This document shows, piece after piece, positions 1 through 19,000 of a DNA stretch of 64,000 nt. Source of the stretch: Deltaproteobacteria bacterium. Lineage in GTDB: Bacteria; Desulfobacterota; Desulfobulbia; Desulfobulbales; Desulfurivibrionaceae. Numbering within the stretch: the stretch's first letter is position 1; each line of letters opens with the position of its first letter. A program made the position numbers and the translations under genes. Location: NCBI GenBank assembly GCA_021802775.1, contig JAJZRJ010000003.1, forward strand, positions 42,392-106,391, read 5' to 3'. The notes below the pieces were generated by a model. The model saw nothing but the letters and a program-made list of their open reading frames with translations. It was not told where the DNA came from and ran no database searches.

Positions 1-813
1 ATGGGGCTTCTGGTGGACTCGTATTGCGAGCAGTTCGTCACGGTCCAGGGCATGAAGCTCTCGGCCCTGGCGGAGATGCTGCTCAAGACGGTGCCCTTTA
101 TCAACCGCAAGCATATCCAGTATCAGGAGAACATCGTCGGCAAACTGAAAGGCAAGAAGCGCTCCGTCGATCAGCCCTTGGTCGGCTACCTGGACACCCC
201 GCAGAAGATATCCCAGATCGAGCCGGGTATGACCGTCTTCGATGTGCTGCGGACCTACGCGGCCAGCCGCGGGCTGATGTTTTTCGCCCAGCCGGACGGC
301 ACATTTATCTTCGGGCGGCCAAAGGCCAAGGGGGAGCCGATGTTTACGCTCACCTGCACGAAGAGCGGGGTCGGCAACAATGTGTTGGGTGGTGAGGAGA
401 TCGATGACATCTCGAAGCGGTACTCGAAGGTGACAGTCATCGGGCAGCAACAGGGCCAGGATGATATGGGTATGGACGCCACCAAGATCACCACCAGCGG
501 GGTGACGGAGGATAAGGGCTTCCCGTTCTATAAACCCTTTGTCTCCACCGATAACAACGATTCGCAGAGTCCGCAGCTTCACGCCAGGTTCCTGATGGAG
601 CAACAGCGCCACCAGGGGTATCAACTGCTCTACCGAGTCCAGGGCCACAGCCAGAACAACAAGAACTGGCGGATCAATGAGCTGTGCAAGGTCCACGATG
701 AGGCACTGGGGATTGACGGCGTCTATCTCATCTACGGCCGCACCTTCGAACGCTCCAAGCAAGACGGCACGTTTACCAGCCTGAAGCTCGGGCCGCCGGG
801 GTTGGTGCAATAA
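1..813 (+). CDS. Mu P (gp44)-like baseplate hub protein, 5' end cut by window
   Basis: The reading frame is open from the first base and gives 270 residues. The family (Mu gpP/gp44, P2 gpD-like hub proteins) usually has well over 300, so the N-terminus is probably outside the window and the ATG at base 1 may be internal. These proteins form the trimeric hub at the base of a contractile tail and connect the tube to the spike. Assignment rests on the general sequence pattern and on the gene order P, gp45, gp46, gp47, gp48 that follows. The stop TAA overlaps the next ATG (TAATG at 811-815), typical of coupled phage tail genes. Confidence 0.7.
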   Translation: MGLLVDSYCEQFVTVQGMKLSALAEMLLKTVPFINRKHIQYQENIVGKLKGKKRSVDQPLVGYLDTPQKISQIEPGMTVFDVLRTYAASRGLMFFAQPDGTFIFGRPKAKGEPMFTLTCTKSGVGNNVLGGEEIDDISKRYSKVTVIGQQQGQDDMGMDATKITTSGVTEDKGFPFYKPFVSTDNNDSQSPQLHARFLMEQQRHQGYQLLYRVQGHSQNNKNWRINELCKVHDEALGIDGVYLIYGRTFERSKQDGTFTSLKLGPPGLVQ

Positions 814-1346
814 TGGTTCGCGTCATTATCAAATCGGTATGGGAAGGGGTCATCAAGCGCTTCAGCGCCACCGGCCGGCCGGGCGAGGAGTTCATCAACC
901 GGGAATACTTCCAGCATTACGGCTACACCTCACGCCCGCTGCCGGGCGCCGAAGGGATCATTATCCGGGACGGCAACCACATCATTATGATCGGCTCCGA
1001 CGATCGCCGGTACCGGGTCGCGATCGAGGAGGGCGAGGTCGCGCTTTATGACGACCAGGGCCAGGTGATCAGGCTGAAGCGCGGCAAGGAGATTCATATA
1101 TATGGATGTGACAAGCTGTTCGCCGCCGTAGCCGTCGAGACCAAGATCACCTGCCCCCTGGTGCGGGTCGTGGCCGCCACGAAAGTGAGGATGGAGACGC
1201 CGCTCCTTGAGGTGACCGGCGAGATCAAGGACCGTTGCGACAGTACCGGCCGGACCATGAGCGAGATGCGCGGCACCTACAACAGCCATACGCATCCGGA
1301 AAACGACAACGGCGGCCCCACTGGGGCGCCGAACCAGGGGATGTGA
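813..1346 (+). CDS. Mu gp45-like baseplate assembly protein / tail spike
   Basis: A 177-residue protein of the Mu gp45 / P2 gpV type, which forms the membrane-piercing spike under the baseplate hub. The middle is beta-strand-rich and repetitive. The C-terminus carries a histidine motif (SHTHPENDNGG) followed by a Pro/Gly tail; HxH motifs near the tip of such spikes bind an iron ion in known structures. The start overlaps the hub gene stop (TAATG) and the stop overlaps the next gene (TGATG at 1344-1348). Position and motif make this one of the firmer phage calls. Confidence 0.82.
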   Translation: MVRVIIKSVWEGVIKRFSATGRPGEEFINREYFQHYGYTSRPLPGAEGIIIRDGNHIIMIGSDDRRYRVAIEEGEVALYDDQGQVIRLKRGKEIHIYGCDKLFAAVAVETKITCPLVRVVAATKVRMETPLLEVTGEIKDRCDSTGRTMSEMRGTYNSHTHPENDNGGPTGAPNQGM

Positions 1347-1729
1347 TGGACTTTGCGATTGCCATACCAGCAGTCAGCTCGACAGGAGCGCCGGAGCCGC
1401 TTGGCCAGATGTCCTTCGACGAGGCGGCCGACATCGGCAACAACATCTATCTCAGCCTGGCGGTGGAGAAAGGCGCCTTCTTCCACAATCCAGCATTCGG
1501 CCTGCGGCGGCGCGGGAGGCTGAAGAATACCGAGACCACGGCCGGCCTGATCCGCCAGGATTACCTGGAAGCGCTGCGATGGCTGGTTGACACCGGCCGC
1601 GCCAAATCTGTGGAGGTCTTTGTGGAGCGCGACCGGACGCAAGACTTGGGCCGCCTGAAGGTGCTGATCGAGGCCGTGCAGGCAGACGGCCGCACGGTGA
1701 CGTTTACGACATTCAAAGAGGTGGTGTGA
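1346..1729 (+). CDS. Mu gp46-like baseplate wedge protein
   Basis: A 127-residue protein of the phage GP46 family, a small baseplate wedge component comparable to gpW/gp25 proteins that starts sheath polymerisation. The C-terminal half, with a DYLEALRWL helix and a strand pattern ending in TVTFTTF, fits the family. The ATG at 1346 overlaps the TGA of the spike gene. A longer reading frame from 1235 exists but would overlap that gene by over 100 bases and adds nothing family-like. The stop overlaps the next start (TGATG at 1727-1731). Confidence 0.75.
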   Translation: MDFAIAIPAVSSTGAPEPLGQMSFDEAADIGNNIYLSLAVEKGAFFHNPAFGLRRRGRLKNTETTAGLIRQDYLEALRWLVDTGRAKSVEVFVERDRTQDLGRLKVLIEAVQADGRTVTFTTFKEVV

Positions 1730-2499
1730 TGGCCTTCGAAAGAACCTTTGACGAGATACTGAACGGCATCCTGGTTGACTTCCGGAACATTTTTCCGGGT
1801 GTCGATGTTTCCCAGGGCAGCCTGGCCTACATGAAGGCAGCCGGCTACTCCTCGGCACTGTGGGGGCTCTACAAATACCAGGAATGGATCAGCCGCCAGG
1901 CGTTTCCGGACACGGCGGAGACCGAAGCCCTGGAACATCATGCCTGGGTGCGCGGGATTGCCCGCACGGCTGGCGAGAGCGATGCCGTCTATCTGGCCCG
2001 GCTGCTGGATTACATCCGGCGGCCGCCGGCTGGGGGCAACAAATACGACTACGAGAAATGGGCCAAAGAGGTGGACGACGTGGCCGGGGCTTATGCCTTC
2101 CCGCTGGCCCAGGGTGGAGAGAGTGTGGACGTGGTGATCGTGGCCAACAAGACCACGACCGGCTCCGAGATACCGAATCAGACCTTGATCGATGCGGTGG
2201 CCGCCTATATCGAGGATGTGCGGCCGGTGGGCGCGAGGTTCGTGAGAGTGTTGGCGCCGACCATCATTAGCCAGGCGGTGACGATGACCGGGGTTGGCGG
2301 CACGATGACGGCGGCGGTGGCGGCTGACATCGAGGCGTACCTCTCCGGCTTCGAGCCGGGGCAGGAGCTGTATCTGCCGCAGTTGATCTCCATTGCCACC
2401 GACAACGGCGCGGCCAACCCGGCGGTTACTGTGCCGGCCGCCACGGTCACGCCCTCCTCCAGCCAAATGCTGCGGCCAGGGGCAATCAATGTCAGTTAG
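1729..2499 (+). CDS. Baseplate J-like protein (Mu gp47)
   Basis: A 256-residue baseplate J / Mu gp47 family protein, a wedge component that links the central hub to the tail-fibre attachment sites. The N-terminal part (FPGVDVSQGSLAYMKAAG) and the later segment in which the two wedge arms are built match the family pattern, though it is shorter than the roughly 350-residue Mu protein. The ATG at 1729 overlaps the preceding TGA; a GTG three bases upstream (1726) is a poorer alternative. Its end overlaps the start of the gp48-like gene by 11 bases. Confidence 0.8.
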   Translation: MAFERTFDEILNGILVDFRNIFPGVDVSQGSLAYMKAAGYSSALWGLYKYQEWISRQAFPDTAETEALEHHAWVRGIARTAGESDAVYLARLLDYIRRPPAGGNKYDYEKWAKEVDDVAGAYAFPLAQGGESVDVVIVANKTTTGSEIPNQTLIDAVAAYIEDVRPVGARFVRVLAPTIISQAVTMTGVGGTMTAAVAADIEAYLSGFEPGQELYLPQLISIATDNGAANPAVTVPAATVTPSSSQMLRPGAINVS

Positions 2500-3049
2500 G
2501 GCCAACATCGATATCCTGCGACTGCTCTTCCCCGTTGAACTCGGTGGGGAGCACAATGCCGACTTGGCGTTGGACGCCAAACACCTGGACACGGCGCAGG
2601 CCAGCGCCGATACCCTGCTCGCGGAGGTCTTCCCAGATACCACCGAACGGTTGCTCGCGAGCTGGGAGCGGGTTCTTGGTTTGACGCCTGGTGCGGATGA
2701 TCCGTTGCAGTTCCGGCGAGAGAAAGTCATGCGGAAGATTCGGGAGAGGGGCGGCCTGTCCATCCCGTATTTCATGACCTTGGCACAAACGCTCGGCTAT
2801 GTGGTCGAGATCGTGGAGCCACTGCCGTTCATGGCCGGATGGGGCGCCGCCGGTGATGAACTGTTTGACGCCACGATCATCTATCAATGGGGCCTGGAGA
2901 TATACAACCAGCCGATTTATGAGTTCCGGGCCGGCGAGTCGGTGGCTGGAGAAATGCTGACTTGGTGGGACTCGCGAACGTACCTTGAGGATCTGTTCCG
3001 GGAGCTGAAGCCCGCCCATACCTTTGTCTACTTCAGCTACATCGAATAG
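2489..3049 (+). CDS. Mu gp48-like tail protein (DUF2313, YmfQ family)
   Basis: A 186-residue protein of the DUF2313/YmfQ family, which in Mu-like phages lies directly after the gp47 gene and completes the baseplate wedge near the fibre attachment point. The visible pattern is 'LLPxEL.. ERLLASWERVLGL' near the N-terminus, then 'RREKVMRKIRERGGLSIPYF' and a C-terminal aromatic-rich segment. I chose ATG 2489, which overlaps the upstream stop; the frame is open further upstream (2393) but within the gp47-like gene. The stop is followed by a strong ribosome site (AGGAGG) for the next gene. Confidence 0.8.
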   Translation: MSVRANIDILRLLFPVELGGEHNADLALDAKHLDTAQASADTLLAEVFPDTTERLLASWERVLGLTPGADDPLQFRREKVMRKIRERGGLSIPYFMTLAQTLGYVVEIVEPLPFMAGWGAAGDELFDATIIYQWGLEIYNQPIYEFRAGESVAGEMLTWWDSRTYLEDLFRELKPAHTFVYFSYIE

Positions 3050-3057
3050 GAGGAACC

Positions 3058-3318
3058 ATGGAGAGAATAGGAACGACAAGTGGGTTGTTCAGTGCCGGCG
3101 AACCGGCCACCAACACCAAGGGCACCGTGGTGACGGCTGCCTGGCTGAATGGCGTGCAGGAGGAGATTGTCAACGTCATCCTCGCCGCCGGTTTGGTTCC
3201 TGACGGTGCCGACCTGGCCCAGCTCACGCAGGCGATTAAACGCTACAAAGACACGGTGACGACCACCAAATACGATCTGCGCGTCGAGAGCGGCGTGCTA
3301 GTACTCAAGGAGGTGTAA
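3058..3318 (+). CDS. Short tail-fibre N-terminal-type protein
   Basis: An 86-residue protein with a strong ribosome site (AGGAGGAACC before the ATG). The central pattern TVVTAAWLNGVQEEIVNVI is the segment commonly found in N-terminal regions of Mu-like phage tail fibres, where the fibre meets the baseplate. Here the protein ends after a short helical stretch, so it is an adaptor-sized module, not a full fibre. Inference: it may connect the baseplate to the variable tip protein encoded two genes later. The family resemblance is from memory and should be taken as tentative. Confidence 0.55.
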   Translation: MERIGTTSGLFSAGEPATNTKGTVVTAAWLNGVQEEIVNVILAAGLVPDGADLAQLTQAIKRYKDTVTTTKYDLRVESGVLVLKEV

Positions 3319-3320
3319 CG

Positions 3321-3656
3321 ATGTACGGATACCCGAAGTTGATCGCCACCCGCCACGACGTCGACGTGCTGATGGGCTATCTCGGGAGCGAGTGGGCGAC
3401 CGAGGAGAACAAGGCCAAGGGGGTGGCGTTTTTCCGCGGTCTTATCGCCAGCGCCCGGGCCTACGTGTTCGACCGGATGCTGGCCGAGGGCGAAGCGGCG
3501 GCCGGGCCGTTGCCCGAGTACATCGTGCTCGTGCAGGAGGATGGCACCCGGCGCCAGGAGCGGCTGGTCGATGATCCGGCCGGCCGCATTTACCGCCTGG
3601 GCTACACCGTGGCCGAGGTCGAGGCGATGATCGCAACTATCGAGGGAGGTGCGTAA
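3321..3656 (+). CDS. Hypothetical phage tail protein upstream of the DGR target
   Basis: A 111-residue acidic protein that I do not recognise. It starts two bases after the preceding stop and its TAA overlaps the ATG of the variable protein (TAATG at 3654-3658), so it is translated within the tail operon. The middle has a helix-rich stretch (KGVAFFRGLIASARAYVFDRM), then short strands and a C-terminal helix. Size and position resemble tail-fibre assembly or chaperone genes. It was considered as the DGR accessory protein Avd, but Avd proteins are basic four-helix bundles, and this one is acidic with extended segments. Confidence 0.5.
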   Translation: MYGYPKLIATRHDVDVLMGYLGSEWATEENKAKGVAFFRGLIASARAYVFDRMLAEGEAAAGPLPEYIVLVQEDGTRRQERLVDDPAGRIYRLGYTVAEVEAMIATIEGGA

Positions 3657-4717
3657 TGGCAGCTGGAGACAAGATCATCGTGCCGGCCATGGCGGCCGGG
3701 TTTGTATCGCTTTTCGGGCAGATCAGCAAAGGGGCGGGCGATACGGTCCACCTGCCCGAGGGCATGGCCAACATCGGTGGCAACGGGTTCGGTTATCTGC
3801 TCGCCCCGGCGGTCAACTGGGACCCGCTGGCGGCCGGCAACAACGACGGCTCGTTTGCCGCGCTCGCCCTGGGCGACAACATCTATATCTACGCCGTCCG
3901 GCAGGCCTCCGGCACGGCGAAGTGGGTCGCCTCCAAAAACTCCACCGTGCCCACCGGCTACGATGCGGCGAGCAGCCGCAAGATCGGAGGGTTCCACGTG
4001 GGACGCTACCGGGGCGTGGCCAACCGCTACAATACCGCGTATGCCCCGGTGACGCAGATTCTCCCCAACTCCTGCTGGGACCTCGCCCACCGTCCGACCT
4101 GCGACCCGACCGGCATGGTGGAGGTGATCCCGGGCAGTCTGTGGGTGGATATCTACCCCAACTCCGAGGGCGCCGGCCTCTGGCCGGAAAATGTTCCGGT
4201 GAGCGTCTACGGCGCCACCATCATCCGGGATACCATTTACAGCCGCTCGGATTTTCACCAGCTCATCAACAACGCCGGCAAGCGGCTGCCCACGGTCGAG
4301 GAGTTCCTCCGCTACGCCGAGGGAGCCCCGGCCGGGCTCGATGGCAGCAACGACCAGGCGTGGTCGATGACCACCAACACCGGCCCTACTACGGCCGGCG
4401 GCGTGGCCAAAGCGGTGAGCCAGTACAACGTGGTCGACGCGGTGGGCAACGTCTGGGATTGGCTCGACAGCCATCATGACATCGGCGACTACAATGGTTC
4501 CGTGACCCCCTACGCCTGGGATGCCGCCGTGGTCAACGTCGGCAAGGATGCCGCCTATCCCCGCGGCAGCGTGGACCACGCGGCGTGGGGGGCGTTCATC
4601 GGCGGGGGCCCTTGGCTCGGCGGCGTGCTCGACGGTGCGCGCTGTCTGTACTCGAGTGCGGTTCCGTGGGATGCGGATGGCCGTGTGGGTCTGCGCGGCG
4701 TCTGTGACTCCCTGTAG
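3656..4717 (+). CDS. DGR variable protein: C-type-lectin / FGE-like phage tail tip (receptor-binding) protein
   Basis: A 353-residue protein whose C-terminal domain has the formylglycine-generating-enzyme / C-type-lectin pattern used by DGR targets: GKRLPTVEEFLRYA, then VVDAVGNVWDWL, and a Gly/Arg-rich end (RVGLRGVCDSL). The first 100 or so residues are likely the tail-attachment part. The last 33 codons (residues 319-351) are the variable repeat; compared with the template, residues W320, L321, G322, Y332, S334, V336, D339, D341 and R343 are changed, six of them from asparagine codons. Known: in Bordetella phage BPP-1 the equivalent Mtd protein binds the host receptor through such residues. 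It overlaps the upstream gene by TAATG and is the last tail gene before the retroelement. Confidence 0.88.
   Translation: MAAGDKIIVPAMAAGFVSLFGQISKGAGDTVHLPEGMANIGGNGFGYLLAPAVNWDPLAAGNNDGSFAALALGDNIYIYAVRQASGTAKWVASKNSTVPTGYDAASSRKIGGFHVGRYRGVANRYNTAYAPVTQILPNSCWDLAHRPTCDPTGMVEVIPGSLWVDIYPNSEGAGLWPENVPVSVYGATIIRDTIYSRSDFHQLINNAGKRLPTVEEFLRYAEGAPAGLDGSNDQAWSMTTNTGPTTAGGVAKAVSQYNVVDAVGNVWDWLDSHHDIGDYNGSVTPYAWDAAVVNVGKDAAYPRGSVDHAAWGAFIGGGPWLGGVLDGARCLYSSAVPWDADGRVGLRGVCDSL
4610..4708 (+). repeat. DGR variable repeat (VR)
   Basis: Ninety-nine bases at the 3' end of the tail protein gene that align without gaps to 4765-4863. There are 12 differences, all at positions where the template has adenine: 4612, 4613, 4617, 4619, 4649, 4656, 4661, 4662, 4670, 4676, 4682 and 4683. 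The last 25 bases (from 4684) are identical to the template; this is the expected initiation-of-mutagenic-homology segment. The match ends one codon before the last two codons of the gene. Confidence 0.95.
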
Positions 4718-4733
4718 CATGAACCCTGATGAG

Positions 4734-4751
4734 GCCCCGCGGCAGCGGGGC
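4734..4751 (+). promoter_or_regulatory. DGR-type hairpin/cruciform after VR, GGCA tetraloop
   Basis: A perfect 7-bp GC-only stem (4734-4740 with 4745-4751) closes a four-base loop GGCA, 25 bases after VR. Known: hairpins of 7-10 bp with GRNA tetraloops just after VR increase target recognition in Bordetella phage BPP-1 and related DGRs; GGCA fits GRNA. A U-run does not follow, so it is a weak candidate for a plain terminator. Confidence 0.75.
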
Positions 4752-4764
4752 TTACTCCTGCTGG

Positions 4765-4863
4765 CCAAGGCACAGCGGCGTGCTCGACGGTGCGCGCTGT
4801 CTGAACTCGAATGCGAATCCGTGGAATGCGAATGGCAATGTGGGTCTGCGCGGCGTCTGTGAC
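4765..4863 (+). repeat. DGR template repeat (TR)
   Basis: The non-coding template copy of VR. It contains 18 adenines, of which 12 are replaced in VR; none of the other 81 positions differs. In the VR reading frame it holds six AAC/AAT codons plus AGG, CAC and AGC, the typical design in which adenine replacement in the first two codon positions can give many amino acids but no stop from AAY. TR starts 47 bases after the target gene stop and precedes the reverse transcriptase on the same strand. Confidence 0.95.
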
Positions 4864-5041
4864 CACCATCATGCGAGAGGGCGGCGATGGTTCGCCGTCA
4901 CCCAGCACCCCACCAGGGGGTCAGCCTGCCCGGCCTGGTCCCGCACAAGCGGGCCGAAGATTTGAAAACGGGCACGCCGCGCGAGTAGCCGAAAGGCGAA
5001 AGCCCGGCGTGGCCACCTCTCATATTAATGATAAGGGAAGC
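4765..5041 (+). ncRNA. Probable DGR template RNA (TR plus 3' spacer)
   Basis: In the BPP-1 system the template RNA extends from TR into a structured spacer of about 140 nt before the reverse transcriptase gene, which primes and positions cDNA synthesis. Here 178 bases (4864-5041) separate TR from the RT start. They hold no plausible gene and contain small inverted segments, for example GGCGATGG-TTCGCCG and a repeated CGAAAGGCGAAAG stretch. The exact RNA ends are inferred. Confidence 0.6.
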
Positions 5042-6076
5042 ATGGGCCAGAAGCACAAGCGACTGATTGAAAAGATTGTCGACTGGGATAACCTCATCGA
5101 GGCCCACCGACTGGCACGCCGTGGCAAGCGCAATCGCGAGGAGGTGATCCTTTTTGAGGCCAGCCTCTGGGAGGAGTTGGGCCGGCTGCAGATGGAGCTG
5201 CTCTGGGGCACCTATCGGCCTGGTGGCTACCGCACCTTCGTGATCCGCGAGCCCAAGCGGCGGGAGATCGCCGCGCTGCCCTACCGCGATCGCGTGGCGC
5301 AGCATGCCATCTGTAACATCTGCGCGCCCATCTGGCACAGCGGCATGATCAATGACACCTACGCCTGCCGCCCCGGCAAGGGCACCCATGCCGCGGCCAA
5401 TCGCTGCCAGCGCTGGCTGCGCGATATGCACAAGAGCGGCCGGCCGGTGTGGCTGCTCAAGATGGACGTGAGCCGCTATTTTCCGAGCATCCGCCATGCC
5501 CTGGCCAAGCAGGTCGTGCGCCGCAAAATTGCCTGCCCGGCCACCCTGCGCCTGCTCGATACGATCATCGACAGCACGGCCGCCTGCGGCGAGACGGACC
5601 CCGTGGGCATCCCGGTGGGCAACCTCACCAGCCAGTGGATCGCCAACCTGGTCGGCAACGAGCTGGACCAATGGGCCAAGCGCGAGCTGCGGCTCAAGCG
5701 TTATATCCGCTACATGGATGATATGGTGGTGCTCTGCTGGAGCAAGGAGGAGGCCCTGGCCGTCCGCGACCGATTCGAGGGCAAGCTCGCCTCCATGGGG
5801 ATGACCTTCAGCAAGACCAGCGTGCTGCCGGCCGGCCGTGGCCTCAACTTTGTGGGCTATCGCATCTGGCACGATCATCGGCTGCTGCGCCGCCAATCCA
5901 TCGTCACCATGAGGCGGCGGCTGAAGGCGCTCCAGGGGCAGTTCCGGGAGGGGCTGATCAGCCTGGACCGGGTCCAGGCCACTGTTTCGTCGTGGGTGGC
6001 ACATGCCGCTCATGCGGATAGCTATCGCCTGCGATCCAAGGTATTGGGCGCCGCTGTTTTCCGGCGAGAGAACTGA
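5042..6076 (+). CDS. DGR reverse transcriptase
   Basis: A 344-residue reverse transcriptase. Visible blocks: finger motifs around residues 68-95, motif A with the first catalytic Asp (KMDVSRYFPSI, about 140-150), the DGR/retron-type motif IPVGNLTSQ (190-198), the catalytic YMDD (224-227) and a thumb region ending near GLNFVGYRIW. The IPxGNxTSQ block is the family hallmark that separates DGR enzymes from group II intron and retroviral types. I chose ATG 5042 after AAGGGAAG; the open frame to 4811 runs back into the template repeat and is not coding. It reverse-transcribes the template with adenine infidelity and supplies cDNA to overwrite VR. No maturase or endonuclease domain is present, as expected. 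Confidence 0.93.
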   Translation: MGQKHKRLIEKIVDWDNLIEAHRLARRGKRNREEVILFEASLWEELGRLQMELLWGTYRPGGYRTFVIREPKRREIAALPYRDRVAQHAICNICAPIWHSGMINDTYACRPGKGTHAAANRCQRWLRDMHKSGRPVWLLKMDVSRYFPSIRHALAKQVVRRKIACPATLRLLDTIIDSTAACGETDPVGIPVGNLTSQWIANLVGNELDQWAKRELRLKRYIRYMDDMVVLCWSKEEALAVRDRFEGKLASMGMTFSKTSVLPAGRGLNFVGYRIWHDHRLLRRQSIVTMRRRLKALQGQFREGLISLDRVQATVSSWVAHAAHADSYRLRSKVLGAAVFRREN

Positions 6077-6525: not shown

Positions 6526-6876
6526 TCAAGACTCCCCAAGAAGACATTCGTAGGGGATACGCATTCCTTTGTGCAATTTTTTAATCTGCGGCACAGAAAG
6601 ACCGCGTTTCCGGTTCAGCACATCGCTTACTCGACTTTTCGGTCCCAAAAATTCCTGAAGTTTTTTTCGGTCTATCCCCATTTGATCCATTTGGAAAAGA
6701 ATCGCATTTACTGGATCGGACGGGGGAATTGGATAGTGCTTGTTTTCGTATGCCTCGACAAGCACCATTAAAATTTCCAGTTCATCGCCTTCAGGGGTAT
6801 TGGAGGCAGCGCCCCAAAGCTCTTCGATGCGCTCAAGGGCCTCTTGGTAGGCATGTTCATTTTTTAACGGTTTCAT
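6526..6876 (-). CDS. higA: HigA-type antitoxin
   Basis: A 116-residue antitoxin. The C-terminal half is a helix-turn-helix of the XRE type (MGIDRKKLQEFLG ... RVSDVLNRKRGLSVPQI), and the N-terminal half is the acidic helical region seen in this HigA subfamily. It binds and neutralises HigB and represses the shared promoter. The start ATG overlaps the toxin stop by four bases, in the toxin-first order typical of higBA. It lies at the edge of the prophage, where such pairs often sit as stabilisation modules. Confidence 0.85.
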   Translation of the reverse strand: MKPLKNEHAYQEALERIEELWGAASNTPEGDELEILMVLVEAYENKHYPIPPSDPVNAILFQMDQMGIDRKKLQEFLGPKSRVSDVLNRKRGLSVPQIKKLHKGMRIPYECLLGES

Positions 6877-7175
6877 TTCACCACCTCGGTTTCTATTTCA
6901 TCGTATTCCTTGTGGGTTCCTACAAATTTGATGAACATTGCCTGCCTTTGATAATCCATCGCGCAGACTACCCTGTAGCTGTTCCCTTTCACATTGAATA
7001 CGACCCGATTTTCTGCCACGATCGAGGCATGGCTGAATGTATTTTTAACATCTTGTGGAGTTGCCCATTTTTGTTTTTTGCAAAAGTGATACCATTCCGT
7101 CAGAAATGGTTGGGCCTTTTCGTTGCCGGGTTTTTCCCAGTACTTTCTCAATCTGCTTTTGGCAATTATTCGCAT
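6873..7175 (-). CDS. higB: HigB-type mRNA interferase toxin
   Basis: A 100-residue toxin of the HigB family, a ribosome-dependent mRNA endonuclease with the RelE fold. The diagnostic C-terminal pattern is present: NRVVFNVKGNSYRVV, then FIKFVGTHKEYD. I chose the ATG at 7175 because family members start close to this point (MRIIAK) and the promoter lies just upstream; the open frame extends 14 codons further. First gene of the operon, with higA behind it. Confidence 0.87.
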   Translation of the reverse strand: MRIIAKSRLRKYWEKPGNEKAQPFLTEWYHFCKKQKWATPQDVKNTFSHASIVAENRVVFNVKGNSYRVVCAMDYQRQAMFIKFVGTHKEYDEIETEVVK

Positions 7176-7185
7176 CCATGAACCC

Positions 7186-7227
7186 GGTTGTTCCCAATAT
7201 GGTAACAACCTCCCCATTTGTTGTCAA
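7186..7227 (-). promoter_or_regulatory. higBA promoter with palindromic operator
   Basis: Reading leftwards there is a TTGACA box (7222-7227), a 17-base spacer and TACCAT (7199-7204). A 25-base imperfect palindrome (7186-7210, arms GGTTGTT and AACAACC) covers the -10 box. This is the expected place for HigA binding and autorepression. The first transcribed base would fall about 18 bases before the higB ATG. Confidence 0.7.
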
Positions 7228-7577
7228 TGATGAAAATATCTTTTCAGGGCGAGCCTCTTGCAAAATGACGAATCAAGCCTTTTGTGCAGGCGCGGTAGGT
7301 AGAGTAATACCGATCCGGGAGAAGGCCGTGCTTCCGGGTTGGATGCTCCCGCTAACGCACCCCAGGCGAGGATGTCTTGACCCAATTTGCCATGGTTTGC
7401 ACCATAAATTTGTCCCGCCTATGTCCAGCTTTTTAGGCTGGCAGGCAATGAAATTACATGAAAGGCAAAATATGGTTTTTTTTCTCGTAAAGTCAACGAG
7501 TTTTGTGGCTGTTTCGGAGGGGTTGAAAGGGGATGAAAAGGGTTGAAAAGTGTTCCGTTTTGAATGGGGGTTCACGG
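7228..7577. other. Prophage right-end non-coding region
   Basis: About 350 bases between the higBA promoter and the tRNA fragment. A 100-codon open frame on the minus strand (7273-7575) has no family features and runs into the tRNA fragment, so I do not call it. Nothing else was identified; phage attachment-site arms often contain integrase binding sites in such a position. Confidence 0.4.
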
Positions 7578-7608
7578 GCCGGAGGTTCGAATCCTCTCAT
7601 CCCGACCA
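7578..7608 (+). other. tRNA-Pro 3' fragment, prophage attachment site (att)
   Basis: The segment contains a T-stem (GGAGG / CCTCT), the T-loop TTCGAAT, a 7-base acceptor strand CATCCCG, discriminator A and encoded CCA. No D-arm or anticodon arm can be folded upstream. The acceptor and T-arm sequence is characteristic of bacterial tRNA-Pro. It is therefore the duplicated 3' end left by phage integration; the other copy should complete an intact tRNA-Pro at the left prophage end. Confidence 0.8.
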
Positions 7609-7617
7609 GTAATATGC

Positions 7618-7650
7618 AAGAGGTATGGCCTGATGGTCATACCTCTTTTT
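7618..7650 (+). terminator. Intrinsic terminator of the former tRNA-Pro unit
   Basis: A 10-bp perfect stem (7618-7627 with 7638-7647), extended by GCC/GGT around a TGAT loop, ends in five T. It lies ten bases after the tRNA fragment on the same strand, so it most likely ended the tRNA transcript before phage integration. Confidence 0.85.
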
Positions 7651-8432: not shown

Positions 8433-9257
8433 TTATTTGTGCCCTGAATTGGTGGTCAGGAACACCCGACTGCCGATGGGTGCCTGCAGCCGCAGGGCGG
8501 CGTTGCCTTGATTGACCGCGATTTCGAGGGTGCCGCGGCTGCCGAACAGGGCCACCGTTTCGTTAAAGGCGACAGCGGCGTAGGAATGGCGGATTTTTCC
8601 CACGGCCTGATCATTGACGCTGACCACAATCTGATTGAGGTGACTCGCCAGAGTGGCGAGGTGTTCGCGGCGCAGGTTGGTGAGCAGATTGCCGAAATGG
8701 TCGATGGCCACCACCTCGCCGGTTGCCGTGCCGGTGGCGGCATCGATCTTCGGCTGCGGCAGCGGTAAGCGGGTGAGTGCCGAGGCGTCCAGGGCCGGGC
8801 CGACGCTGGCCGGATCAGCGCCGTTGGCCAGGGCGGCGGCGACCGGCGCGAAGATGTCGCGGCCGTGGAAGGTACCGCTGACCGGGTTGAGGAAGAGCGC
8901 CTGATTGCTGACTACATAGGCCTGCCGTAGCCCCGGCTCATCCAGCAGCAGGGTGAGCACGCCATTGTCCGGGGCGAGAAAACGGCCATGATCCGTGTCG
9001 AGCAGCAGGATGCGGCGTTCCGTGCCCACCCCCGGGTCCACCACCACCACGTGGAGGGTGGCCGACGGAAAGTAGCGCCGGGACGCGTGCAGCAGATAGG
9101 CCGCGCAGCGGAGATCCTGGGGTGGCACTGTATGGCAGAGGTCGATGATGCGGGCCTGGGGAGCGCGGGCGGCGATGACCCCGTGCAGCACCCCGACATA
9201 TTCGTCGGCCAGACCGAAGTCGGTGGTCAGCGTGATGAACGGCGGATCAACGGCCAT
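8433..9257 (-). CDS. S-adenosyl-L-methionine hydrolase (SAM hydroxide adenosyltransferase, DUF62)
   Basis: A 274-residue member of the DUF62 family, related to the bacterial fluorinase and chlorinase but in most bacteria a hydrolase that splits SAM to adenosine and methionine. Seen: the N-terminal TLTTDFGLADEYVGVLHG, the VVVDPGVGTERR block, the FLAPDNGVL block and the HFGNLLTNL motif in the C-terminal domain. Hydrolase-type members use an Asp-Arg-His set to activate water. It is the last gene of the DinG, IspB, YibQ operon, overlapping the YibQ-like gene by 11 bases. Confidence 0.88.
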   Translation of the reverse strand: MAVDPPFITLTTDFGLADEYVGVLHGVIAARAPQARIIDLCHTVPPQDLRCAAYLLHASRRYFPSATLHVVVVDPGVGTERRILLLDTDHGRFLAPDNGVLTLLLDEPGLRQAYVVSNQALFLNPVSGTFHGRDIFAPVAAALANGADPASVGPALDASALTRLPLPQPKIDAATGTATGEVVAIDHFGNLLTNLRREHLATLASHLNQIVVSVNDQAVGKIRHSYAAVAFNETVALFGSRGTLEIAVNQGNAALRLQAPIGSRVFLTTNSGHK

Positions 9258-10377
9258 GGGTGCGGAAGATGGTTCCGATGCCCACCACCGCGGCCCGTTC
9301 GGTGAGCGCCTGCTGGCGCGCGGTCAGGGCGGCCAGCGTTGCCGGGTGGGGATGGCCGATGCCCACGGCCCAGCCATTTTTCTCCGCCAGGGCCAGGAGG
9401 GCGTCCACTTGCTTGACGACGGCCGCCTGGCTCTGGTCGTTGTCGAGAAAGAGGTGCCGGGAGAGGCAGGGTACACCAGCTTCCTTCGCCACGGCGCAGG
9501 CCACGCTCTTGTTCGAAGTGCGGCTGTCGAGGAAGAAAAGACCACGCTGCCTGACCTGGGTGAGCAGGGCCGCCATCGCTGGCCGTTCTTCGGTGAAGCG
9601 GGAGCCCATGTGGTTATTGAGGCCGATGGCCATGGGCACGGCGGCCAGGTCCTCGGCGAATTTTTTTTCCAATTCCTGGGGGTCCATTGCCACGGCGAGA
9701 GTACCGGGGCCGGGGTCCACCTTGCGGTCGGTCGCCTCCAGGGGCAGGTGGAGCAGGATGTCGCGTTTCCTGCTTTTGGCCGCGCTGGCCAGCTCCTTGG
9801 TCTGCGGGCCGCCAGGCAGGAAGGAGAAGGAGAGAGGGAGAGGCAGGTCGAGCATCTTGCGGCCGATGGCCGGTTGATAGCCCATGTCGTCGATGATGAT
9901 GGCCACCATCGGTTTCTTGCGTGGGGTTGCCGGTGGTTCCTTGTGCGCGGCGGGGGTTGCTGCCGGCGGCGGGACTTCCGTTGCAGACGTTGATTCGGCG
10001 GCCTGTTTGGCAGGTGCCGCGGGGGCGATGGCCGGTTCGGACGGCACGGCGACCGGTGGTGCCGCAGGCGGTGCCATAACCGGCGCCATGTCGGCTGCCG
10101 GTGCCGGCGGAGTCGTTTCCGGCGGTGTGGGCTCGGGCGGCAGTGACTCAGCCGCGGGCGGAGTGGTCAGTGGTTCGTCAACGGACGGTTGGGCCTGAGG
10201 CGTTTTCGCCACTTCGCTGGTCGGCGTTTGCTCTGCTGCCGGGGGAAAAAGCGGGACCTGGAGAAAGACGAAGTAGCCAATCCCGGCCAGGCTGGCCAGC
10301 GCCAGGAGGATCAGGATGAATCGGCCGTAGGGCCGTGATTTCGATTTTTTCTGGCGGGTGCGGGCTTTGGTCGCCAT
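9247..10377 (-). CDS. Divergent polysaccharide deacetylase family protein (YibQ-like)
   Basis: A 376-residue protein. The N-terminus is basic (RTRQKKSKSRPYGRF), followed by one membrane segment (ILILLALASLAGIGYFVFL), then about 130 residues of Pro/Ala/Thr-rich linker, and a C-terminal domain starting MVAIIIDDMGYQ. This domain has the divergent polysaccharide deacetylase pattern (DUF610): PLPLSFSFLPG, HLPLEA, GLNNHMGS and a late GIGHPHPATLAAL. It should act in the periplasm on a glycan or peptidoglycan; the exact substrate is unknown. The low-complexity linker probably spans the cell wall. Seven bases downstream of ispB. Confidence 0.85.
   Translation of the reverse strand: MATKARTRQKKSKSRPYGRFILILLALASLAGIGYFVFLQVPLFPPAAEQTPTSEVAKTPQAQPSVDEPLTTPPAAESLPPEPTPPETTPPAPAADMAPVMAPPAAPPVAVPSEPAIAPAAPAKQAAESTSATEVPPPAATPAAHKEPPATPRKKPMVAIIIDDMGYQPAIGRKMLDLPLPLSFSFLPGGPQTKELASAAKSRKRDILLHLPLEATDRKVDPGPGTLAVAMDPQELEKKFAEDLAAVPMAIGLNNHMGSRFTEERPAMAALLTQVRQRGLFFLDSRTSNKSVACAVAKEAGVPCLSRHLFLDNDQSQAAVVKQVDALLALAEKNGWAVGIGHPHPATLAALTARQQALTERAAVVGIGTIFRTHGR

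Positions 10378-16621: not shown

Positions 16622-19000
<2,379 letters not shown>

What the first reader, a model, noticed from the sequence alone, without database searches (positions are those of the whole stretch)
3656..6076. Complete diversity-generating retroelement on a Mu-like prophage tail
The window holds target gene, variable repeat, template repeat and a DGR-type reverse transcriptase in order on one strand. The target is the last tail gene after the gp44-gp48 baseplate cluster, so the phage can vary its receptor-binding tip. Target, repeats and RT are seen directly; the role in host range is inferred from Bordetella phage BPP-1.
Basis: partly seen in the sequence, partly recalled or inferred. 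Interest (0 to 1): 0.95.

Follow-up and report, generated by a model that had tools for sequence, protein, structure and literature searches.

The report
Phage mutation cassette missing its helper
A bacterial virus lodged in a bacterial chromosome carries a gene-diversifying cassette for its predicted host-binding tail protein, but all except the start of the cassette's helper gene is missing here, so that protein is likely no longer being varied.

Summary
The DGR is real: an Mtd-family target (3656-4717) ends in a variable repeat that differs from the downstream template repeat only at template adenines (12 of 12 mismatches), and an intact DGR-type reverse transcriptase follows (5042-6076; PDB 8ub7, E 7e-69). 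The phage is Mu-like. "Complete" is wrong. In 12 of 12 close relatives fetched, and in BPP-1, VR and TR lie 510-556 nt apart with an Avd gene between them; here the spacing is 155. Against the nearest relative 372 nt are missing: about 97 of 117 avd codons and 55 nt of the TR's 5' end. A 20-codon avd stump (4719-4778) runs into the TR. No Avd in the genome draft reaches the family cut-off. In BPP-1, Avd loss lowers repair to about 1e-9 (PMC12875486), so this cassette is likely dead or very weak and its tip frozen. The RT is intact (dN/dS 0.11), so the loss is likely recent. Activity without Avd is not excluded: virus vir525 has a similar cassette with no recognised Avd. Known kind of system; a natural Avd deletion.

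The parts
1..3049 (+). Mu-like baseplate module: gp44-like hub (cut at the window's start), gp45, gp46, baseplate J (gp47), gp48
   Evidence: Pfam PF22174/PF22630, PF06890, PF07409, PF04865, PF10076; PHROG tail families; YPCBV-1 homologues of gp44, gp45, gp47 and gp48
3058..3318 (+). small gene resembling the N-terminal part of tail-fibre proteins
   Evidence: PHROG tail fibre families, best named phrog_1858 E 4e-14; YPCBV-1 hyp51 31%
3321..3656 (+). small conserved gene of unknown function before the target
   Evidence: no Pfam, PHROG or NCBIfam hit at E 0.001; 36% to YPCBV-1 hyp52
3656..4717 (+). DGR target, Mtd-family predicted receptor-binding protein, 353 aa
   Evidence: PF21916 E 3.5e-21, phrog_11262 E 3e-48, six PDB Mtd sequences E 1e-16 to 1e-13, 51% to the YPCBV-1 target
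4610..4708 (+). variable repeat (VR) at the 3' end of the target
   Evidence: 12 of 12 mismatches to TR at TR adenines
4684..4708 (+). IMH-like stretch identical in VR and TR (3' end of VR)
   Evidence: identity after the last differing site 4683; the role is recalled from BPP-1
4734..4751 (+). hairpin/cruciform after VR: GCCCCGC-GGCA-GCGGGGC, 7-bp stem, 4-nt loop
   Evidence: fits the 7-10 bp stem and GRNA loop 4-34 bp after VR of PMC3240598 (passages); not significant by energy alone in the window (z -0.17)
4719..4778 (+). avd stump: first 20 codons (MNPDEAPRQRGLLLLAKAQR)
   Evidence: 76% to residues 2-22 of YPCBV-1 Avd; weak hit (E 0.05, 65%) to residues 1-20 of L085 Avd; codons
4776..4779 (+). 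junction where about 372 nt present in relatives are missing; CGGC may be a 4-nt microhomology (end points uncertain by about 16 nt)
   Evidence: alignment to 5 relatives; spacing 155 against 510-556; CGGC at 4776
4776..4863 (+). truncated template repeat (88 nt homologous to relatives' TR; the match to VR extends left to 4765)
4864..5041 (+). spacer RNA region between TR and RT, conserved in relatives
   Evidence: alignment of 4830-5041 with 10 relatives; consensus fold of 48 pairs, 21 with changes on both sides in at least one sequence, some pairs lying in the TR end
5042..6076 (+). DGR-type reverse transcriptase, 344 aa, intact (YMDD, VGNLTSQ)
   Evidence: 8ub7 E 7e-69, phrog_1423 (scanned as the longer open frame), 40% to BPP-1 brt, tree, motifs and dN/dS

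Best explanation
This is an Mtd-type diversity-generating retroelement of a Mu-like prophage in which a stretch of about 372 nt that 12 of 12 close relatives keep (about 97 of 117 avd codons plus the 5' 55 nt of the template repeat) is missing, so it likely no longer diversifies its predicted receptor-binding tail protein. Shown: target, VR, truncated TR, hairpin, spacer region and intact RT, with VR/TR mismatches only at TR adenines, and no Avd over the family cut-off in the genome draft. Inferred: the full-length cassette once homed in the usual way (RT-Avd copies TR RNA with errors at adenines and the cDNA replaces VR). A deletion, perhaps at a 4-nt microhomology, then removed the Avd protein, part of the template and the end of avd that in BPP-1 stops reverse transcription. 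The target side (VR, IMH-like end, hairpin) is left in place. Without Avd the RT would make little usable cDNA and VR would stay at its last variant. The RT has not visibly decayed, so the loss is likely recent.
For: VR/TR pair with all mismatches at A. Avd (PF22296) lies between VR and TR in relatives: found in 12 of 12 loci with RT identity 63-90% and in BPP-1 (5 of the 12 and BPP-1 were seeds of that HMM, the other 7 were not), VR-TR spacing 510-531 and 556 nt against 155 here. The alignment with 5 relatives shows one clean gap. Avd stump. No bAvd match over cut-off in G000 (best 13.5 bits against 40). Against the TR of L085, the VR letters at its triplets AAT TGG AAC AAC differ at 6 of 6 adenines and at 0 of 6 other letters; this TR part no longer exists here, which suggests that homing predates the deletion. 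BPP-1 needs Avd: repair falls to about 1e-9 (PMC12875486, section read); a figure legend there says that a motif at the 3' end of avd ends reverse transcription. RT intact, dN/dS 0.11 to L085; 1 residue changed only in the window against 4 only in L085.
Against: No activity was measured. One assembly carries the deletion. vir525 shows an Mtd-type target with an A-biased VR/TR pair (17 of 19 mismatches at A) and no Avd recognised in its 60 kb, so Avd may not be needed in all such systems. 40 of 164 RT loci lack an Avd by my own HMM (one of them is the window's own copy, several have little flank or distant RTs). The RT shows no relaxed selection. The 11 letters left of the junction agree with VR at all 7 non-A positions, as expected if VR had been rewritten after the deletion (see full report).
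Confidence: 0.74

Rival explanations
1. The shortened cassette still works without Avd: the RT copies the truncated TR on its own, as a compact DGR.
For: RT intact and under purifying selection; spacer region, hairpin and VR kept; vir525 precedent with TR 180 nt from VR and no recognised Avd; VR agrees with the post-deletion TR at all 7 non-A letters of 4765-4775.
Against: Avd is needed in BPP-1; 12 of 12 close relatives keep Avd; vir525's RT is distant (37%) and its helper may simply be unrecognised; the junction agreement was seen after the fact.
Confidence: 0.12
2. Avd is supplied in trans by a co-resident or co-infecting related phage, so the cassette is conditionally active.
For: PMC3240598 passages describe a BPP-1 lysogen deleted from avd into brt that is used in homing and tropism assays, and a donor plasmid that expresses avd, brt and TR, so in that phage the parts can act from elsewhere. 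Related RTs occur in the same bacterial family (G018 has two, 90% and 40% identical).
Against: No Avd over cut-off in G000 and no second related RT there; but the draft is 91% complete.
Confidence: 0.08
3. The gap is an assembly or binning artefact and the real element has avd.
For: Short repeats (VR/TR) lie at the site; only one assembly is known to me; the IMG/VR copy L005 is probably the same assembly.
Against: The shared sequence at the junction is about 4 nt, far below an assembler word; VR and TR are both present and distinct; the stump runs directly into TR.
Confidence: 0.06

Closest known systems
Bordetella phage BPP-1 DGR (mtd-avd-TR-brt)
   Same: Mtd-family target, VR at its 3' end, hairpin after VR, TR then RT, adenine-only changes; RT 40% identical
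   Different: avd reduced to a 20-codon stump, TR shortened, VR-TR distance 155 instead of 556; the phage around it is Mu-like
Chromohalobacter phage YPCBV-1 (OP380511)
   Same: Mu-like phage with the same tail order; target 51%, RT 68% identical; 22 of 52 of its proteins match the prophage region
   Different: has a full avd between target and TR (PF22296); its transposase and AAA ATPase gave no match at E 0.01 in this prophage
L085, Deltaproteobacteria bacterium SKS1.bin10
   Same: nearest DGR: RT 90% identical, VR, TR and spacer align
   Different: full avd (117 aa) and 143-nt TR
vir525 (BK063673), virus assigned to Methanosarcinales
   Same: Mtd-type target, TR close behind VR (180 nt), no recognised Avd
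   Different: distant RT (37%); its compact order may be native, I did not test for a deletion
Hankyphage DGR (Mu-like Bacteroides phage)
   Same: DGR on a phage with a Mu-like transposase (PMC6199706 passages)
   Different: large C-type lectin target; a small Avd-like ORF is reported there

Membership tests
Diversity-generating retroelement (general) | RT of the DGR group | tested here: met
   8ub7 (recalled as the Bordetella phage bRT complex) E 7e-69 against a group II RT E 6e-15; groups with DGR RTs in a tree of the window, 30 chosen of 164 loci and one long-branched outgroup
Diversity-generating retroelement (general) | TR and VR nearly identical with changes at TR adenines | tested here: met
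   12 of 12, P 2e-11; 8 of 8 in the part shared with relatives' TR
Diversity-generating retroelement (general) | VR in the 3' end of a ligand-binding target gene | tested here: met
   Mtd family by sequence; binding itself not tested
BPP-1-type DGR with Avd | intact avd gene | tested here: not met
   20-codon stump only
BPP-1-type DGR with Avd | IMH-like end and hairpin after VR | tested here: met
   7-bp stem with GGCA loop 25 nt after VR; energy not better than shuffles in the window (92 of 200 as good)
BPP-1-type DGR with Avd | active mutagenic homing | tested here: inconclusive
   past homing inferred from VR; no second VR with this junction found
Mu-like transposable phage | Mu-type transposase with AAA ATPase | tested here: met
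   PF09299 E 2e-11 at C31:14363-16654, AAA_22 at 16679-17404, GemA E 7e-22
Mu-like transposable phage | Mu-like tail/baseplate module | tested here: met
Mu-like transposable phage | TG..CA ends with 5-bp target duplication | tested here: inconclusive
   no convincing ends found; a tRNA-Pro 3' end is repeated on both sides instead

The most novel reading that the evidence does not exclude
A natural, compact, Avd-independent DGR: after losing avd and more than a third of its template the element still homes, with VR already rewritten from the shortened TR, parallel to the compact Mtd-type cassette of vir525. That would show that an otherwise ordinary BPP-1-type RT can dispense with Avd in one step.
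Probability: 0.12. Interest if true: 0.7.

Novelty: new member of a known kind. Interest (0 to 1): 0.38.

Why it matters
Comparison with kin shows a natural deletion of the helper in an otherwise intact cassette. It is a ready-made natural test of whether Avd is needed outside BPP-1, and a warning against calling a DGR active from RT and repeats alone. If the element proved active, it would change the view of Avd as an essential part.

Tried and rejected
Rejected or without result: (1) RT beginning at 4811 (open frame): relatives' RTs start at the position of 5042, and 4811 lies inside TR. (2) Avd elsewhere in the genome: none over cut-off; with L085 Avd only the stump and one other weak match, E 0.26. 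(3) The gene at 3321-3656 as Avd: its homologue in YPCBV-1 (hyp52) stands beside a separate Avd. (4) A known structured RNA in the first 12 kb: 0 Rfam matches at gathering score. (5) A second VR for this junction: the exact 28-nt pattern in viral contigs gave one contig, the 100%-identical IMG/VR copy; the one other genome of the genus has no related RT; the target cluster holds 1 member sequence on 4 contigs and the next proteins are 80-81% identical (which scored only 7994 candidates). Metagenome contigs was not scanned (stated cap 0). (6) Mu ends and 5-bp duplications: none convincing. (7) VR left of 4610 against the L085 TR: 2 of 6 adenines and 3 of 38 other letters differ, too few to tell. 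(8) Outgroups for the RT tree: of four loci meant as non-DGR outgroup only L176 gave a match and was used. (9) Papers: the searches listed none whose title or abstract start names a natural avd deletion, and I saw none in the passages read. Of papers I saw: PMC12875486 passages and one section; passages only of PMC3240598, PMC6642488, PMC4372165, PMC6199706 and PMC8867640; all others in listings only. The library holds open-licence papers only.
Full report
What is there. On the + strand the window begins inside a Mu-like baseplate module (gp44-like hub, gp45, gp46, baseplate J, gp48), followed by two small genes and a 353-aa target at 3656-4717. The target belongs to the Mtd family: Pfam PF21916 (E 3.5e-21), phrog_11262 (E 3e-48), and all six PDB sequences found are Mtd variants (E 1e-16 to 1e-13). 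The target ends in a repeat (4610-4708) that recurs at 4765-4863. The unbiased repeat finder gives 95 nt at 89%. All 10 mismatches in that stretch (P 8e-10) and all 12 in the 99-nt stretch (P 2e-11) fall on adenines of the downstream copy. A 344-aa RT follows at 5042-6076 with YMDD and VGNLTSQ. Its best PDB match is 8ub7 (E 7e-69), far ahead of the best group II RT (E 6e-15). In a tree of the window, 30 chosen of 164 RT loci and one outgroup it groups with DGR RTs; the outgroup has a very long branch, so the tree mainly orders the DGR members.

The phage. The window's contig was read back from its start in stretches. The phage genes run from about C31:11.4 kb to 48.5 kb: an HTH repressor and a second HTH gene, Mu-type transposase (PF09299), AAA ATPase, GemA and terminase, then a structural module. 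Of 52 proteins of Chromohalobacter phage YPCBV-1 that I used as queries, 22 match this region at E 0.01 or better, mostly in the same order. YPCBV-1's own transposase and AAA ATPase gave no match, so the early regions differ. Mu-type ends with 5-bp duplications were not found.

The cassette is not complete. In YPCBV-1 an Avd gene is annotated between target and TR. I measured the VR-TR distance in the 12 close RT relatives fetched (RT identity 63-90%: L006-L013, L085-L087, L165; L013 and L087 look like one element, L011 and L012 are near-identical) and in BPP-1: 510-531 nt in the 12, 556 in BPP-1, 155 in the window and its IMG/VR copy L005. That pair finder favours mismatches at A, so it locates repeats but does not test the bias; in it 4 of the 12 relatives also show one or two mismatches at other letters. 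An Avd HMM seeded with six sequences (L085, L006, L008, L011, L165, BPP-1) and rebuilt with its own hits found Avd in all 12 and in BPP-1, and none near the window's RT. Avd of L085 and of YPCBV-1 are PF22296 (E 3e-18 and 6e-16). The alignment with five relatives shows one clean gap in the window from inside avd to inside TR. What remains of avd is its first 20 codons (4719-4778; 76% to YPCBV-1 Avd residues 2-22). The TR keeps 88 nt of the 143 measured in L085. CGGC at 4776-4779 could have served as microhomology; the end points are uncertain by about 16 nt. The missing length is 372 nt against L085 (527 minus 155). In the draft no bAvd match reaches the cut-off (best 13.5 bits against 40); the draft is 91% complete.

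History. The part of L085's TR that has no counterpart in the window's TR includes the triplets AAT TGG AAC AAC. The window's VR there differs at 6 of 6 adenines and at 0 of 6 other letters. The three AAY triplets align with codons 344, 346 and 347 of BPP-1 Mtd, which carry TR adenines there. So VR was probably last written there from a longer TR, before the deletion. Further left the pattern is too thin to judge (2 of 6 adenines, 3 of 38 others). The RT is intact: dN/dS 0.11 against L085 (range over all pairs 0.08-0.32), one residue changed only in the window against four only in L085. Relaxed selection is not visible, so the loss is likely recent.

Homing in kin. L011 and L012 come from IMG/VR records with different metagenome numbers and match at 99.85% over 11,084 nt with 17 mismatches. 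In the 3,031 nt around the cassette there are 14 mismatches, and all 14 lie in VR at TR adenines. These relatives keep Avd. For the window's junction I found no second carrier in what I searched.

How it likely works now. In BPP-1 the RT-Avd complex is recruited by the spacer RNA, TR is copied with errors at adenines, and a motif at the 3' end of avd ends the copy (PMC12875486, figure legend seen). Inactivating RT, Avd or TR lowers repair to about 1e-9, lowest without Avd (section read). The TR used in that assay holds only 36 nt of the target gene plus stop codons, so a shortened TR alone need not kill homing; loss of Avd is the decisive point. The target side is kept: the VR end, and a hairpin GCCCCGC-GGCA-GCGGGGC 25 nt after VR that fits the 7-10 bp stem and GRNA loop reported in PMC3240598 (passages). 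By folding energy alone the window's hairpin region is no better than shuffles (92 of 200 as good), nor clearly that of YPCBV-1 (23 of 200), while those of L085 (3 of 200) and BPP-1 (1 of 200) are. The spacer region aligns with ten relatives and shares a consensus fold. So the machine likely lacks one protein and part of its template, and VR is likely frozen.

Against this reading. vir525, a virus assigned to Methanosarcinales, has an Mtd-type target with a TR 180 nt behind VR, 17 of 19 mismatches at TR adenines over 98 nt, and no significant Avd match in its 60 kb even with all filters off (best E 3). Over 164 RT loci, 40 had no Avd by my HMM; these include L005, loci with almost no flank, and distant RTs whose helpers my model may miss. 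In addition, the 11 letters 4765-4775, which look avd-derived, agree with VR at all 7 non-A positions. Hand arithmetic, not a call: if VR came from a TR like that of L085, four of these agreements are coincidences of about 1 in 4 each; comparing the likelihoods of the two origins favours the post-deletion TR by about 16 to 1, before allowing for the exact crossover that it needs and for having looked afterwards. I leave this as unexplained rather than as evidence.

Verdict. A DGR of a well-known kind on a Mu-like prophage, naturally deprived of Avd. New member of a known kind, likely decaying.

Noticed in passing
C31:10943-11019 (L002) and window 7561-7620: A tRNA-Pro gene stands at the left end of the prophage and its 3' end is repeated (93-96%) at window 7561-7624, as if the 39 kb between were a tRNA-integrated element, yet none of the Phage_integrase matches at E 0.001 lies on C31. 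In the other genome of the genus about 9 kb of other DNA sits between the tRNA and the same right flank.
   Followed up: partly
window 6529-7217, - strand: HigB-type toxin gene (PF09907) with a small partner gene (no Pfam hit) behind the RT, between phage and host genes.
   Followed up: partly
L168 (vir525, BK063673): Mtd-type DGR with VR and TR 180 nt apart and no recognised Avd in the whole 60 kb genome.
   Followed up: partly
G018 (L173 = L085; and G018:C3:1031-1996): The nearest relative's genome holds two RTs related to the window's, 90% and 40% identical.
   Followed up: no
L011 and L012, VR 9178-9307: Two metagenome contigs 99.85% identical whose 14 differences around the cassette are all in VR at TR adenines: a picture of homing in a relative that keeps Avd.
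   Followed up: yes
window 4765-4775: Avd-like letters left of the junction agree with VR at all 7 non-A positions; unexplained.
   Followed up: partly
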